Source: Elusimicrobiota bacterium (GTDB taxonomy: Bacteria > Elusimicrobiota > Elusimicrobia > Elusimicrobiales > UBA9959). From it: DNA of 41,999 nt. The notes under the pieces are model-generated. The model was not told where the DNA came from. It was given only the letters and a program-made list of their open reading frames with translations, and ran no database searches. The translations under genes and the position numbers were made by a program. The first letter of the stretch is position 1, and each line of letters opens with the position of its first letter. The DNA lies in assembly GCA_009773155.1 (NCBI GenBank), contig WOVA01000020.1, forward strand, positions 1-41,999, written 5' to 3'. Shown here in pieces: positions 2,384-22,578 of this stretch.

Positions 2384-3771
2384 CAGCCCCGCCTCCGGAA
2401 AACGATATCGCCGCCGACGACGGTCATCCACGCCGCGCCGCGCAGGCGGCGCCCTTTGAAGGGGGAGTTGGACGACTTGGAGAAAAAAGGAGGCTGGACC
2501 TCGTATTCCGCCGACGGGTCTATCAGGGTCAGGTCGGCGTCCATGCCCGGCGCCAGGGAGCCTTTTAAATGGAGCCCCAGCAGCCGGGCCGGGTTCAAGG
2601 AGAGAAGTTCAGCCAGCCGCAGCCGGTCGAGATGTCCCGCGAAGACCAGATGCGTCAGGCAGACGCCGGCCATCGTCTCCAGTCCCGTTACGCCGAAAGG
2701 CGCGCGGAGCAGGCCTTTGGCTTTTTCGGCCGCCGGATGAGGGGCGTGGTCGGTGGCGATCATGTCCACCGTCCCGTCGGCCAGCCCTTTTATGAGCGCA
2801 CGCCTGTCGGCCTCCGCGCGCAGCGGCGGCTTCATCTTCATGTCCGTGCCGCCGGAGACGACGTCGGCTTCCGTCAGGGCTATATAATGCGGGCAGGTCT
2901 CGGCCGTCACCGGCAGCCCCGCCGCCCTGGCGCGGCGCACCAGTTCCACCGAGCCGGCGCAGCTCAGGTGCTGCAGGTGAAGCCGCCCGCCGGCCCGTCG
3001 CAGAGCTCCGGGCACCGACTGCGGCGAAAGCCGCCCTGCTCCGGCCCGTCGCAGAGCTCCGGGCACCGACTGCGGCGAAAGCCGCCCTGCTCCGGCCCGG
3101 CGCAGCGAGGCGAGGTCGGCCCTTACCGCCGAAGTCTCGGCCGCGCGGCTGATTCCCGGCAATCCGAGCCTGCGCGACACGGGGCCGAGGTTTATCACCC
3201 CGGGTCCGGTCAGGCGGAAGTCTTCGGAATGCTGCAGCACCGGCAGGTCCATGTCCCAGGCCCGGCGCAGCGCCTCCTCAAGGAGCCGCCTGCCCGCCAG
3301 CCAGCCGCCGTCGTCGGTGAAGGCGGCCGCTCCGGCGGCGGCCAGCTCCTCCATGGAGGTGAGGGCGCGGCCCGCGCGTCCTTTAGTGAGCGCGGCAGCG
3401 AAGAGCAGGTTAACGGCGCATTTTTTCAGCGCCCGGGCGCGGAGTTTTTTCAGCAATGAGGGATCGTCGCAGGGCGGCGTGGTGTTGGGCATGGCCAGCG
3501 CGGTGGTCACGCCGCCGGCGGCCGCCGCCAGTCCGAAACTGCGGAAGTCCTCGGCCTTCTCCCCGCCGGGTTCCCTGGCGTGAGCGTGGGCGTCGATGAA
3601 ACCGGGAAACAGCCACTTGCCGCGCGCGTCGACAACGGCGCAGCCGCGCGGCGGGGTTATACCCGCGGATATCCGGGTTATCCTGCCGTTCTCGGCGAGA
3701 AGGTCGCGGACCTTCTCCGGGCCCAGCGCGGGGTCAACCGCGAGAGCCCTTCTTATCAGCAGCTTTTTCAT
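2383..3771 (-). CDS. pyrC: Dihydroorotase (type I) with a repeat-encoded insert
   Basis: Cyclises carbamoyl aspartate to dihydroorotate with a zinc centre. Metal-binding DAHAHAREPG is at residues 60-69 (His62, His64), FTDDGG near 151 has the type I Asp, QHSED has His181, LQHLS has His267, and the catalytic TDHAPH Asp is residue 341. The oddity is a 34-residue insert at 224-257: the 17-mer RRAGAGRLSPQSVPGAL occurs twice in tandem just before the conserved RRAGGRLHLQHLS strand, encoded by two 51-bp DNA repeats. Without it the protein would have about the usual 428 residues. The inserted peptide lies before the His-bearing strand, probably in a surface loop, so activity is likely retained but is not shown. 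The start codon lies 2 bp from a mobile-type inverted repeat and no Shine-Dalgarno sequence is visible. Confidence 0.93.
   Translation of the reverse strand: MKKLLIRRALAVDPALGPEKVRDLLAENGRITRISAGITPPRGCAVVDARGKWLFPGFIDAHAHAREPGGEKAEDFRSFGLAAAAGGVTTALAMPNTTPPCDDPSLLKKLRARALKKCAVNLLFAAALTKGRAGRALTSMEELAAAGAAAFTDDGGWLAGRRLLEEALRRAWDMDLPVLQHSEDFRLTGPGVINLGPVSRRLGLPGISRAAETSAVRADLASLRRAGAGRLSPQSVPGALRRAGAGRLSPQSVPGALRRAGGRLHLQHLSCAGSVELVRRARAAGLPVTAETCPHYIALTEADVVSGGTDMKMKPPLRAEADRRALIKGLADGTVDMIATDHAPHPAAEKAKGLLRAPFGVTGLETMAGVCLTHLVFAGHLDRLRLAELLSLNPARLLGLHLKGSLAPGMDADLTLIDPSAEYEVQPPFFSKSSNSPFKGRRLRGAAWMTVVGGDIVFRRRG
2990..3098. repeat. Two tandem 51-bp dispersed-repeat units inside pyrC
   Basis: Two identical 51-bp units (2990-3040 and 3041-3091) are followed by the first seven bases of a third (CCGGCCC, 3092-3098). 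Each unit begins CCGGCCCGTCGCAGAGCTCC and ends AAAGCCGCCCTGCT. Because 51 is a multiple of three and neither strand has a stop in the frame used, pyrC stays open. Related sequence occurs at 11099-11152 (opposite strand) and 22354-22461, so this is a dispersed family and not only local slippage. Confidence 0.9.
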
Positions 3772-3773
3772 TT

Positions 3774-4037
3774 GGGTCCGTTAAAGAATAACTGGCATGA
3801 TTTGGCCGGGTGATTTTGAGCGAACCCAGGAAGGAGGAGCGAGCAATAGTTTTTGCTATGCGAACGACGACTGACGCAGGTGTAGCCAAAAGCGCCCGGC
3901 CCCCAGGGGGAGGCCCGCCTTTGGCCGACTCCATCGTTGCTCCTAATTCACAGACCATCGGTATGCTCATTCGTCGCGCCTCGGATTCGTCTCAAAGCCG
4001 GGCCTCCAAATCGCGTCAGTTATTCTTTAACGGACCC
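3774..4037. mobile_element. 264-bp MITE-like element with 21-bp perfect terminal inverted repeats
   Basis: The ends are perfect inverted copies: GGGTCCGTTAAAGAATAACTG at 3774-3794 and its complement at 4017-4037, with a shared GATTTGG just inside each. Much of the interior is also imperfectly self-complementary (TTTTGAG-CGAACCC on the left against CTTTGAGACGAATCC on the right, GCCAAAAGCG against GCCAAAGGCG), so the whole unit could fold as one long hairpin. No convincing gene is inside. One end stops 2 bp before the pyrC ATG; the other supplies the last codons and stop of the upstream membrane-protein gene. No target-site duplication is evident. It is too short to encode a transposase, hence the MITE-like label. 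Confidence 0.7.
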
Positions 4038-21499: not shown

Positions 21500-21505
21500 A
21501 TTATA
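21500..21505 (-). promoter_or_regulatory. -10 box of the MORN-like gene
   Basis: Complement reads TATAAT in CCTATAATTTG, about 20 bases before the ATG at 21477-21479. No convincing -35 element 16-18 bp further upstream. The 67-bp gap also serves the divergent ABC transporter genes. Confidence 0.45.
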
Positions 21506-21546
21506 GGATAAAATTAATAAGATATGCGTAGCCCTTCCCTCCCGTC

Positions 21547-22578
21547 ATGACTTTTATACACGCCGAAAACCTGACCAAGACCTTCGGCGCCGGCCGCGGC
21601 GCCTTGCGGGCCAGCGACGGCATCTCCTTTTCACTGGAGCGCGGAGGCGTCCTGGGCCTGCTCGGCCCCAACGGCGCCGGCAAGACCACGCTCATAAAAC
21701 AGCTGACCGGTCTGCTGCGGCCCGATTCCGGCCGCGTCCTTATCGGCGGGCTGGATCCGGCGCAGGACCCGCCCGGCCTGCGGGGCCGGCTGGGGCTGCT
21801 GCTGGAGGGTATGCGCAATGTATACCCGTATCTGACCGGCCGGGCGAACCTGGTCTATTTCGGCTACCTGGCGGGGCTGGGCCGGGACGAGGCCGCCCGC
21901 CGCGCGGCGGACCTGCTGGACCGCTTCGGCCTGGCGGCGGCGGCCGATAAGTACGTCATGGCCTATTCGGCGGGCATGAACCGCAAGCTGGCCGTGGCCA
22001 CCTGCCTGATGGGGAGCGCCGATCTGATAATTCTCGACGAGCCTACCGCGGGTCTGGATTCCGCGGCGGCGGACGACCTGGCGGGGCTGGTCGCGGAGCT
22101 TGCCGGCTCCGGCGGCAGGACTTTTATCCTGGCCGGTCACGATATGCGCTTCATGGCCCGGGCCGCCAGGGAGGTGTTGTGGCTCAAGGAAGGGAGGGTC
22201 AGACTTTATGGCCGCGCGGAGGAGGTGACGGCGCTGCCGGCCTACCGCACCGTAAAACTGTCGCTGCGCGGCTCCGTGCCGCTGCGGGCCAGGCTGACGG
22301 AGGCGGGGGCGGAGTTCGCGGAGGAAGGGGGCGTACTATCGGTGAGGCTGGACCCGGCCGGTCGCAGAGCTCGGAACAACGAGCCTCCGGCTCCGCAGGT
22401 GCCGGGCGCCATGTCGCCCGGCCCCGGCACCGACAGCGGACAAAGCCGCCCTGATCCGGCCGCCGCCGGGCCGCTGCTCGCGGAATTGCTCTCCTCCGGG
22501 GACCTGCTGTCGGTCTCCGGCGGCGGCGATCTGGAAGAGGCTTTCAGGGAGATATCGCGTGATACCGCTCAGGGCTGA
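21547..22578 (+). CDS. ABC exporter ATPase with a repeat-encoded insert
   Basis: ATP-binding subunit of an ABC-2-type exporter, 343 residues. Walker A GPNGAGKTT is near residue 40, signature YSAGMNRKL near 140, Walker B LIILDEPTAGLD near 160 and the switch H in LAGHD. The C-terminal part after the nucleotide domain resembles the DUF4162 tail. Within it residues about 270-303 (GRRARNNEPPAPQVPGAMSP and on) are unlike the family and coincide exactly with a 102-bp dispersed repeat, between VRLDPA and the normal-looking GPLLAELLSSGDLLSVSGG. The inserted peptide is Pro/Gly/Arg-rich and probably disordered. The gene overlaps the permease gene by 20 bp, showing a two-gene operon. Exported substrate unknown. 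Confidence 0.9.
   Translation: MTFIHAENLTKTFGAGRGALRASDGISFSLERGGVLGLLGPNGAGKTTLIKQLTGLLRPDSGRVLIGGLDPAQDPPGLRGRLGLLLEGMRNVYPYLTGRANLVYFGYLAGLGRDEAARRAADLLDRFGLAAAADKYVMAYSAGMNRKLAVATCLMGSADLIILDEPTAGLDSAAADDLAGLVAELAGSGGRTFILAGHDMRFMARAAREVLWLKEGRVRLYGRAEEVTALPAYRTVKLSLRGSVPLRARLTEAGAEFAEEGGVLSVRLDPAGRRARNNEPPAPQVPGAMSPGPGTDSGQSRPDPAAAGPLLAELLSSGDLLSVSGGGDLEEAFREISRDTAQG
22354..22461 (+). repeat. Dispersed GC-rich repeat inside the ABC ATPase gene, long form
   Basis: Direct CCGGCC ends (22354-22359 and 22456-22461) are 102 bp apart. The left part GGTCGCAGAGCTC matches the pyrC unit's left part, and the right part GGCACCGACAGCGGACAAAG CCGCCCTG matches the right part of the pyrC and 11099 copies. 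Between them this copy has about 51 extra bases with two hairpins, GAGCC-TCC-GGCTC and GCCGGGCG-CCATGT-CGCCCGGC. The insertion is in frame. Confidence 0.85.

What the first reader, a model, noticed from the sequence alone, without database searches (positions are those of the whole stretch)
2990..22461. A dispersed GC-rich element that inserts in frame into enzyme genes
Three loci carry clearly related sequence: pyrC (two tandem 51-bp units), the ABC ATPase gene (102 bp between CCGGCC ends) and the leader of the gene at 9944. Shared blocks are GCAGAGC, GGCACCGAC-GCGG and GCCGCCCTG-TCCGG. The coding copies are multiples of three and have no stop, even though pyrC reads the element in the opposite orientation to the ATPase gene. 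Seen directly: the repeats, frames and peptides. Known: Rickettsia palindromic elements behave this way. Inference: this is an analogous element family in this lineage, able to add surface loops to conserved proteins.
Basis: partly seen in the sequence, partly recalled or inferred. Interest (0 to 1): 0.78.

Follow-up and report, generated by a model that had tools for sequence, protein, structure and literature searches.

The report
Mobile hairpin DNA inserted inside genes
A bacterium of the phylum Elusimicrobiota carries over a hundred copies of tiny (about 50-base) hairpin-forming mobile DNA elements, many of them inside housekeeping genes without breaking the reading frame, an independent parallel to the protein-coding palindromes known from Rickettsia.

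Summary
The window's genome (an Elusimicrobiota MAG, judged from named relatives) has 113 insertion units, 111 after dropping two chance-like matches. They form one superfamily of two-hairpin elements, usually 51 bp (A, B) or 48 bp (C/D/E), with nested composites: the '102-bp form' is a B inside an A. Both hairpins covary. Insertion is 3' of G-N-C without visible target duplication. The pyrC insert (exactly 2 x 51 bp) is absent from the 14 orthologues aligned, the ABC-ATPase insert from its one close orthologue. By codon scoring, 42 of 111 units lie in-frame in genes, among them argS, cysS, pheS, hflX, kdsB and purQ. Over seven genomes, in-frame insertions occur in 50 of 142 units of codon-multiple length and 0 of 33 others (partly hand-corrected lengths). 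Distribution is patchy: 17 of 340 phylum genomes with either model. In-frame palindromic insertions are already known (RPEs, GTAG/CGTC REPs), so I call this a new variant of a known kind. Single-strand, Y1/HUH-like transposition is my mechanistic guess; no mobilising enzyme was identified.

The parts
2992..3042 (-). A-type element, 51 bp, in frame in pyrC (17 codons)
   Evidence: R1 match 2992-3043, 80.7 bits; absent from 14 orthologues
3043..3093 (-). second, identical A-type element in tandem, 51 bp, in frame in pyrC
   Evidence: R1 match 3043-3094, 80.7 bits; 127 versus 25 bases between the same anchors in G000 and G001/G002, i.e. 102 bp = 2 x 51
2383..3771 (-). host gene pyrC (dihydroorotase)
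   Evidence: Pfam Amidohydro_1 5.8e-26; dihydroorotases are the best solved homologues
11102..11152 (+). A-type element, 51 bp, in the 5' leader of the gene 9944-11086
   Evidence: R1 match 11101-11152, 73.9 bits; sequence read
22356..22457 (-). A-type element split by a B-type element: 102-bp composite, in frame in the ABC ATPase gene (34 codons)
   Evidence: R1 match 22400-22458, 50.6 bits; 34 residues missing in the G001 orthologue
22373..22423 (+). B-type element, 51 bp, nested in the A element
   Evidence: R2 match 22372-22423, 77.8 bits
21547..22578 (+). host gene, ABC transporter ATPase; insert lies C-terminal to the ATPase domain
   Evidence: Pfam ABC_tran 4.3e-27, residues 24-168; insert at residues 270-304

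Best explanation
A superfamily of very small non-autonomous mobile elements, 48-51 bp in this genome, with a fixed plan: GGA-N-CA, hairpin 1, a short linker containing GGTG, hairpin 2 (5-bp stem, usually a tandem G.A mismatch, 2-bp stem, triloop), ending in GGCC or similar. SHOWN: dispersal, covariation of both hairpins, insertion 3' of G-N-C without visible duplication or loss, empty sites in relatives, nesting in each other and in other palindromes, in-frame residence in many genes in all six frames of A. INFERRED: they move as folded single strands, cut and joined by a Y1/HUH-type (IS200/605- or RAYT-like) transposase acting in trans; they are tolerated in genes because their length is a multiple of three and their GC-rich sequence rarely holds a stop, so selection keeps the in-frame insertions at permissive positions. 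The A+B composite probably also spreads as a 102-bp unit. I put about 0.95 on mobile element family, 0.85 on in-frame residence through length filtering by selection, 0.5 on the Y1/HUH-type mechanism; the score below is for the whole.
For: Copies. Covariation: A copies, 63 distinct rows, 36 cells changed on both sides against 6.0 in shuffles; 48-bp copies from several genera, 32 distinct rows, 52 against 13.7. Target: C at -1 in 114 of 115 and G at -3 in 90 of 115 sites (includes nested and tandem copies and the two chance-like matches). Empty sites: pyrC (102 bp, two relatives), argS (51), C85:43236 (48), C85:46087 (51 plus a 3-base difference nearby), C20:15931 (102). Genes: 42 of 111 units in-frame internal by codon scoring; host families, with the insert inside the matched stretch in 11 of the 24 proteins that had a hit (30 submitted). 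Length filter: 0 of 29 against 8 of 35 in six other genomes, p=0.006; pooled with this genome 0 of 33 against 50 of 142, p=6e-6. Y1 transposase: found in 16 of 16 R2-positive genomes, 30 of 61 examined negatives.
Against: No autonomous copy and no transposase flanked by these elements was found. No single Y1 subfamily is shared by the five best-stocked relatives compared, and within the family f1 the Y1 association is not significant (10 of 10 against 20 of 27, p=0.16); genomes are related, so none of these p values is independent. Stop avoidance is not clearly above composition (A: 51% of copies open in six frames against 36% of shuffles; B 24% against 16%, but with slightly more stops than shuffles). 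Within this genome alone the length test is not significant (42 of 107 against 0 of 4, p=0.30), and before I corrected two truncated unit boundaries it read 40 of 105 against 2 of 6. G166 carries 48-bp copies yet 0 of 9 examined are in genes. Two units look like frameshifts and six hold a stop. Pair 14-19 of A is unpaired in 35 of 63 copies.
Confidence: 0.7

Rival explanations
1. The elements are passengers: they spread mainly inside larger MITEs or as recombination/conversion tracts, with no transposition of the 51-bp unit itself.
For: In G174, 11 of 11 loci examined carry a 48-bp element at the same place inside a 175-bp inverted-repeat element; in this genome four D copies share the same flanks, those of a MITE like the one at 3774-4037. 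Most composites carry a B sub-lineage not seen alone (10 of 12 against 0 of 8 after correcting one row by eye; 9 of 11 against 1 of 9 as scripted, p=0.005).
Against: Most units lie in unrelated unique flanks with exact 48-, 51- or 102-bp empty sites, which a larger carrier would not leave.
Confidence: 0.12
2. A different enzyme class (DDE transposase, IS110-type, tyrosine or serine recombinase, or a reverse-transcribed RNA) moves them.
For: No Y1 subfamily is common to the element-bearing genomes; CGTC-type REPs were likewise reported to lack a dedicated transposase (PMC3733652, passages and section 15 read).
Against: No target duplication and a short 5' target motif fit HUH chemistry better than DDE chemistry. 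Other families were not searched here.
Confidence: 0.3
3. The inserts are ordinary lineage-specific expansions of proteins or repeats of a conserved domain.
For: Low-level repeats are common in GC-rich genes.
Against: The same DNA lies in intergenic sites, in both orientations and in six reading frames, giving unrelated peptides; conservation is at the level of DNA pairing.
Confidence: 0.01
4. Assembly or binning artefact of a MAG.
For: Draft genome, 93 contigs.
Against: The same superfamily with covarying hairpins appears in 17 of 340 genomes and in independently named assemblies.
Confidence: 0.01

Closest known systems
Rickettsia palindromic elements (RPE) and Wolbachia counterparts
   Same: Dispersed palindromic elements in spacers and in-frame in conserved genes; several families in one genome (review passages in PMC10969869 and PMC2229807; the original Ogata papers recalled, not read).
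   Different: RPEs are given as about 105-150 bp with one long stem-loop and terminal inverted repeats; these are 48-51 bp with two hairpins, nest in one another, and sit in another phylum. Sequence relation to RPEs was not tested directly.
GTAG- and CGTC-tagged REPs (Di Nocera et al. 2013, PMC3733652)
   Same: Small palindromic repeats, some inside genes in several phyla, sometimes inserted in other palindromes; CGTC type has no known transposase.
   Different: No GTAG or CGTC tag at an end; two different hairpins per unit; fixed codon-multiple length in this genome.
GGGGWSAS TIR repeats of TIRYT transposases (same paper)
   Same: The GGGGAC palindromes in this genome fit that motif and are themselves invaded by A elements at four units (flanks).
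   Different: A separate family; not the elements in question.
Neisseria 107-bp and 155-bp Correia/NEMIS elements (PMC2229807 passages)
   Same: One size class with open frames is found in genes, the other almost only in spacers, a parallel to the length filter seen here.
   Different: Inverted-repeat MITEs with TA duplication; the contrast there is stops, here length modulo three.
IS200/IS605-derived minimal elements, REPINs
   Same: Hairpin ends, site-specific 5' motif, no target duplication.
   Different: No parent element or flanking TnpA found here.

Membership tests
Rickettsia palindromic elements | Dispersed palindromic repeat also found in-frame in conserved genes | tested here: met
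Rickettsia palindromic elements | About 105-150 bp, one long stem-loop with terminal inverted repeats (as in PMC2229807) | tested here: not met
   48-51 bp, two separate hairpins
Rickettsia palindromic elements | Sequence homology to RPE families | not tested
   No RPE sequence was compared; Rfam gave only two tRNAs in the window
GTAG/CGTC REPs | Unpaired GTAG or CGTC tag at one end of the palindrome | tested here: not met
   Consensus ends are GGA-N-CA and GGCC
IS200/IS605-type (Y1/HUH) mobilised element | Insertion 3' of a short fixed motif without target duplication | tested here: met
IS200/IS605-type (Y1/HUH) mobilised element | Subterminal hairpins under structural selection | tested here: met
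IS200/IS605-type (Y1/HUH) mobilised element | Cognate Y1 transposase | tested here: inconclusive
   Y1 genes present in 16 of 16 R2-positive genomes but also 30 of 61 negatives, and no shared subfamily
Classical MITE (DDE) | Terminal inverted repeats and target duplication | tested here: not met
   Empty-site comparisons show simple insertion; ends are not inverted repeats beyond a few bases

The most novel reading that the evidence does not exclude
A self-contained world of codon-sized mobile hairpins: a single-strand transposing superfamily whose lineages that settled on lengths of 48, 51, 72 and 102 bp gained access to the coding part of the genome, nest in each other to make longer in-frame units, and add short new peptides to core enzymes such as aminoacyl-tRNA synthetases, while 50-bp sister lineages stay confined to spacers.
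Probability: 0.3. Interest if true: 0.8.

Novelty: new variant of a known kind. Interest (0 to 1): 0.62.

Why it matters
If true, in-frame invasion of genes by palindromic elements arose independently outside the groups in which I found it described, in a phylum where two literature searches (Elusimicrobi with palindromic, and with miniature inverted-repeat, listings only) showed no title on such elements. The coexistence of codon-multiple and non-multiple lineages of one superfamily makes the old question, whether such elements are merely filtered by selection or adapted to coding DNA, directly testable by comparing genomes. It also marks a natural set of permissive insertion points in core enzymes.

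Tried and rejected
Considered and dropped: Rfam RNA family (only two tRNAs in the window); phage or plasmid origin (no match: viral contigs with one exact A-type pattern; plasmids with the pyrC locus; phages with the ABC locus; records near this genome may be left out there); spread beyond the phylum (the exact A-type pattern gave 24 stretches in 84,980 species: 23 Elusimicrobia and one Rhodobacterales stretch that lacks the rest of the element); a RAYT partner (three Y1 genes in the genome, none flanked by these elements in the Y1 loci scanned; one A copy lies about 570 bp from a Y1 match in G007); special avoidance of stops (not clear). The 12 places where this genome's units had orthologous flanks (11 in a 400-kb sample of G002 and other fetched loci, plus pyrC) gave five clean empty sites; at the other seven the junctions were too diverged to read, and near two of them (C20:15931, C40:163765) G002 has an insertion of its own at another position.

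Strand bias relative to replication was not tested.

Rows dropped before counts: C29:45129 and C34:7633 (chance-like); for the pyrC alignment, three weaker loci (L306-L308) of the 17 that came with relatives were left out. Of the 42 'internal' units, at least three sit at the very end of the protein on inspection (C2:61395 lepB, C29:41581 murI, C55:22020). One degenerate composite (C27:43516, 78-79 bp) has ill-defined length; it is not in a gene.
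Full report
What is there. The pyrC gene (2383-3771, -) holds two identical 51-bp units at 2992-3093; the leader of the gene 9944-11086 holds one at 11102-11152; the ABC ATPase gene (21547-22578, +) holds 102 bp at 22356-22457. The last is not a longer form: it is an element A (the pyrC type) interrupted by a different element, B, at 22373-22423. B also occurs alone elsewhere in the genome (8 of 20 full B copies, after reading C66:19811 as lying in an A).

How many. 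BLAST-type searches of the genome gave 40 and 59 matches (candidate lists were capped). Two covariance models, R1 from 15 A copies and R2 from 16 B-E copies, gave 118 and 86 matches at E<=1, overlapping between the models. Those I kept merge into 113 insertion units; I treat two low-scoring ones as chance. By the script there are 74 uninterrupted A copies including one of the chance-like matches (so 73: 70 of 51 bp and 3 of 50 bp), 20 B copies (19 of 51 bp, 1 of 50 bp) and 17 copies of a 48-bp class (C, D, E). The remaining A copies are split by B, C or D.

Common plan. Reading A in its R1 orientation, all classes share GGA-N-CA, a hairpin, a linker with GGTG, a second hairpin and a terminal C-C. 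On 63 distinct A copies, 94.0% of pair cells are standard pairs and 36 cells have changes on both sides, against 6.0 in shuffles; 0 of 500 shuffles reach the covariation score, although 32 of 500 reach the count of further pair types and one pair of hairpin 1 is open in 35 of 63 copies. On 32 distinct 48-bp copies from this and other genera the figures are 96.1% and 52 against 13.7, with 0 of 500 shuffles reaching any of the five measures. Slid controls are far lower in both. So base pairing of one strand, DNA or RNA, is under selection.

Insertion sites. Placing the two flanks side by side for 115 copies gives C immediately 5' in 114 and G two bases before it in 90 (this set includes nested and tandem copies). 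Relatives show the empty site. In pyrC the same anchors are 127 bases apart here and 25 in G001 and in G002, a difference of exactly 102 = 2 x 51, and the 34 residues are missing from all 14 orthologues aligned. In the ABC ATPase the one close orthologue, G001, has 34 residues fewer. In argS the difference to G002 is 51 bases, at C85:43236 it is 48; C85:46087 shows a 51-base gap and C20:15931 a 102-base gap. No duplication of the target is visible. Seven further places with orthologous flanks were too diverged at the junction to read.

Nesting. B lies in A in 12 of 20 copies, always at one of two sites; five 48-bp copies lie in A and one in a B that is itself in an A. A elements also lie in GGGGAC palindromes at four units and in a MITE related to window 3774-4037 at two (flanks). 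Composites mostly carry a B sub-lineage not seen outside them, so the 102-bp composite probably moves as a unit rather than arising anew each time (one row corrected by eye). Four of five two-copy A tandems are identical pairs.

Genes. With a codon score trained on long frames, 42 of 111 units are flanked on both sides by the same gene in the same frame, 17 lie near a gene's end, 8 have weak downstream signal, 6 hold a stop in the upstream frame, 2 look like frameshifts, 27 have coding sequence on one side only and 9 none (minus the two chance-like units). On inspection at least three of the 42 are at the extreme end of the protein. Single-A internal insertions use all six frames (same strand 2, 5, 10; opposite 2, 1, 7). 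I submitted 30 host proteins to family libraries; 24 had hits, and in 11 the insert lies inside the matched stretch: ArgS, CysS, PheS, HflX, KdsB, PurQ, PfaD, a RarA-like ATPase, a sigma-70 factor, an EpsU-like glycosyltransferase and a PRK07208-type protein. Several of these pass their curated cut-offs despite the insert (ArgS, CysS, PheS, HflX, KdsB, PfaD). Solved homologues of pyrC, KdsB, HflX and PheS have no residues matching the insert (in CysS the region aligns poorly). That these are surface loops, and that the host genes are essential and single-copy, is inference.

Relatives and the length test. R2 finds the superfamily in 16 of 340 genomes of the phylum and R1 in 14, 17 in all (copy numbers capped at 17 per genome there). 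In the R1 search of 61 relatives this genome had 95 matches, same-genus genomes 10, 18 and 7, G007 (another genus; 45% GC in the stretches fetched) 43, and two genomes one each. G002 also has 72-bp A variants with a 21-bp longer hairpin 1. G004, G008 and G025 carry mostly 50-bp or other lengths. Among 64 units I picked in six other genomes, in-frame internal positions were 8 of 35 for lengths divisible by three and 0 of 29 for the rest (p=0.006). Adding this genome gives 50 of 142 and 0 of 33, after correcting two unit boundaries that the script had cut short (full lengths 102 and 156; uncorrected figures). The units are related and not a random sample, and G166, with 48-bp copies, had 0 of 9 in genes, so divisibility permits but does not ensure residence in genes.

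Mechanism. No target duplication, a short 5' motif, covarying hairpins, and insertion into palindromes point to single-strand transposition by a Y1/HUH enzyme acting in trans. Y1 genes occur in all 16 R2-positive genomes and in 30 of 61 negatives examined (G232, positive with R1 only, not examined), but within family f1 the difference is not significant and no Y1 subfamily is common to the five genomes compared. No transposase flanked by the elements was seen. In G174 the 48-bp element rides in a 175-bp inverted-repeat element at all 11 loci examined, so hitchhiking contributes in at least one genome.

Known relatives. In-frame insertion of palindromic elements is established for Rickettsia RPEs and, more broadly, for GTAG/CGTC REPs (PMC3733652, passages and section 15; PMC2229807 and PMC10969869, passages). 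These elements share that behaviour but not the tags, size or single-hairpin build. Two searches for Elusimicrobiota with palindromic or miniature inverted-repeat elements listed 19 (15 shown) and 1 papers, none with such a title. I therefore file it as a new variant of a known kind.

Noticed in passing
window 3774-4037: 264-bp element with 47-nt ends, 79% complementary (GGGTCCGTTAAAGAATAACTG...), a MITE; related copies elsewhere in the genome carry D- and A-type elements inside.
   Followed up: partly
window 35083-35110, 40893-40920, 11603-11628, 26409-26461: GGGGAC...GTCCCC palindromes or arms, fitting the GGGGWSAS TIR motif of Y1 (TIRYT) transposases; some copies elsewhere lie in genes, e.g. 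around an A element in cysS (C49:35226).
   Followed up: partly
window 20118-20177 and 20310-20369: Two identical 60-bp repeats, the first overlapping the 3' end of a tRNA gene (20062-20135) and carrying a terminator-like hairpin; might be a partial tRNA duplication or an attachment site.
   Followed up: no
window 10064-10905: Four copies of a 38-nt repeat about 200 or 400 bases apart within the gene 9944-11086: a repeat protein of unknown family.
   Followed up: no
G174, loci L355-L365: 175-bp inverted-repeat element in many near-identical copies, often at contig ends, carrying a 48-bp element inside.
   Followed up: partly
L326 (G002), near the site orthologous to C20:15931: G002 has its own A-with-D composite a short way from the site where this genome has an A-with-B composite: independent insertions in the same region.
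   Followed up: no
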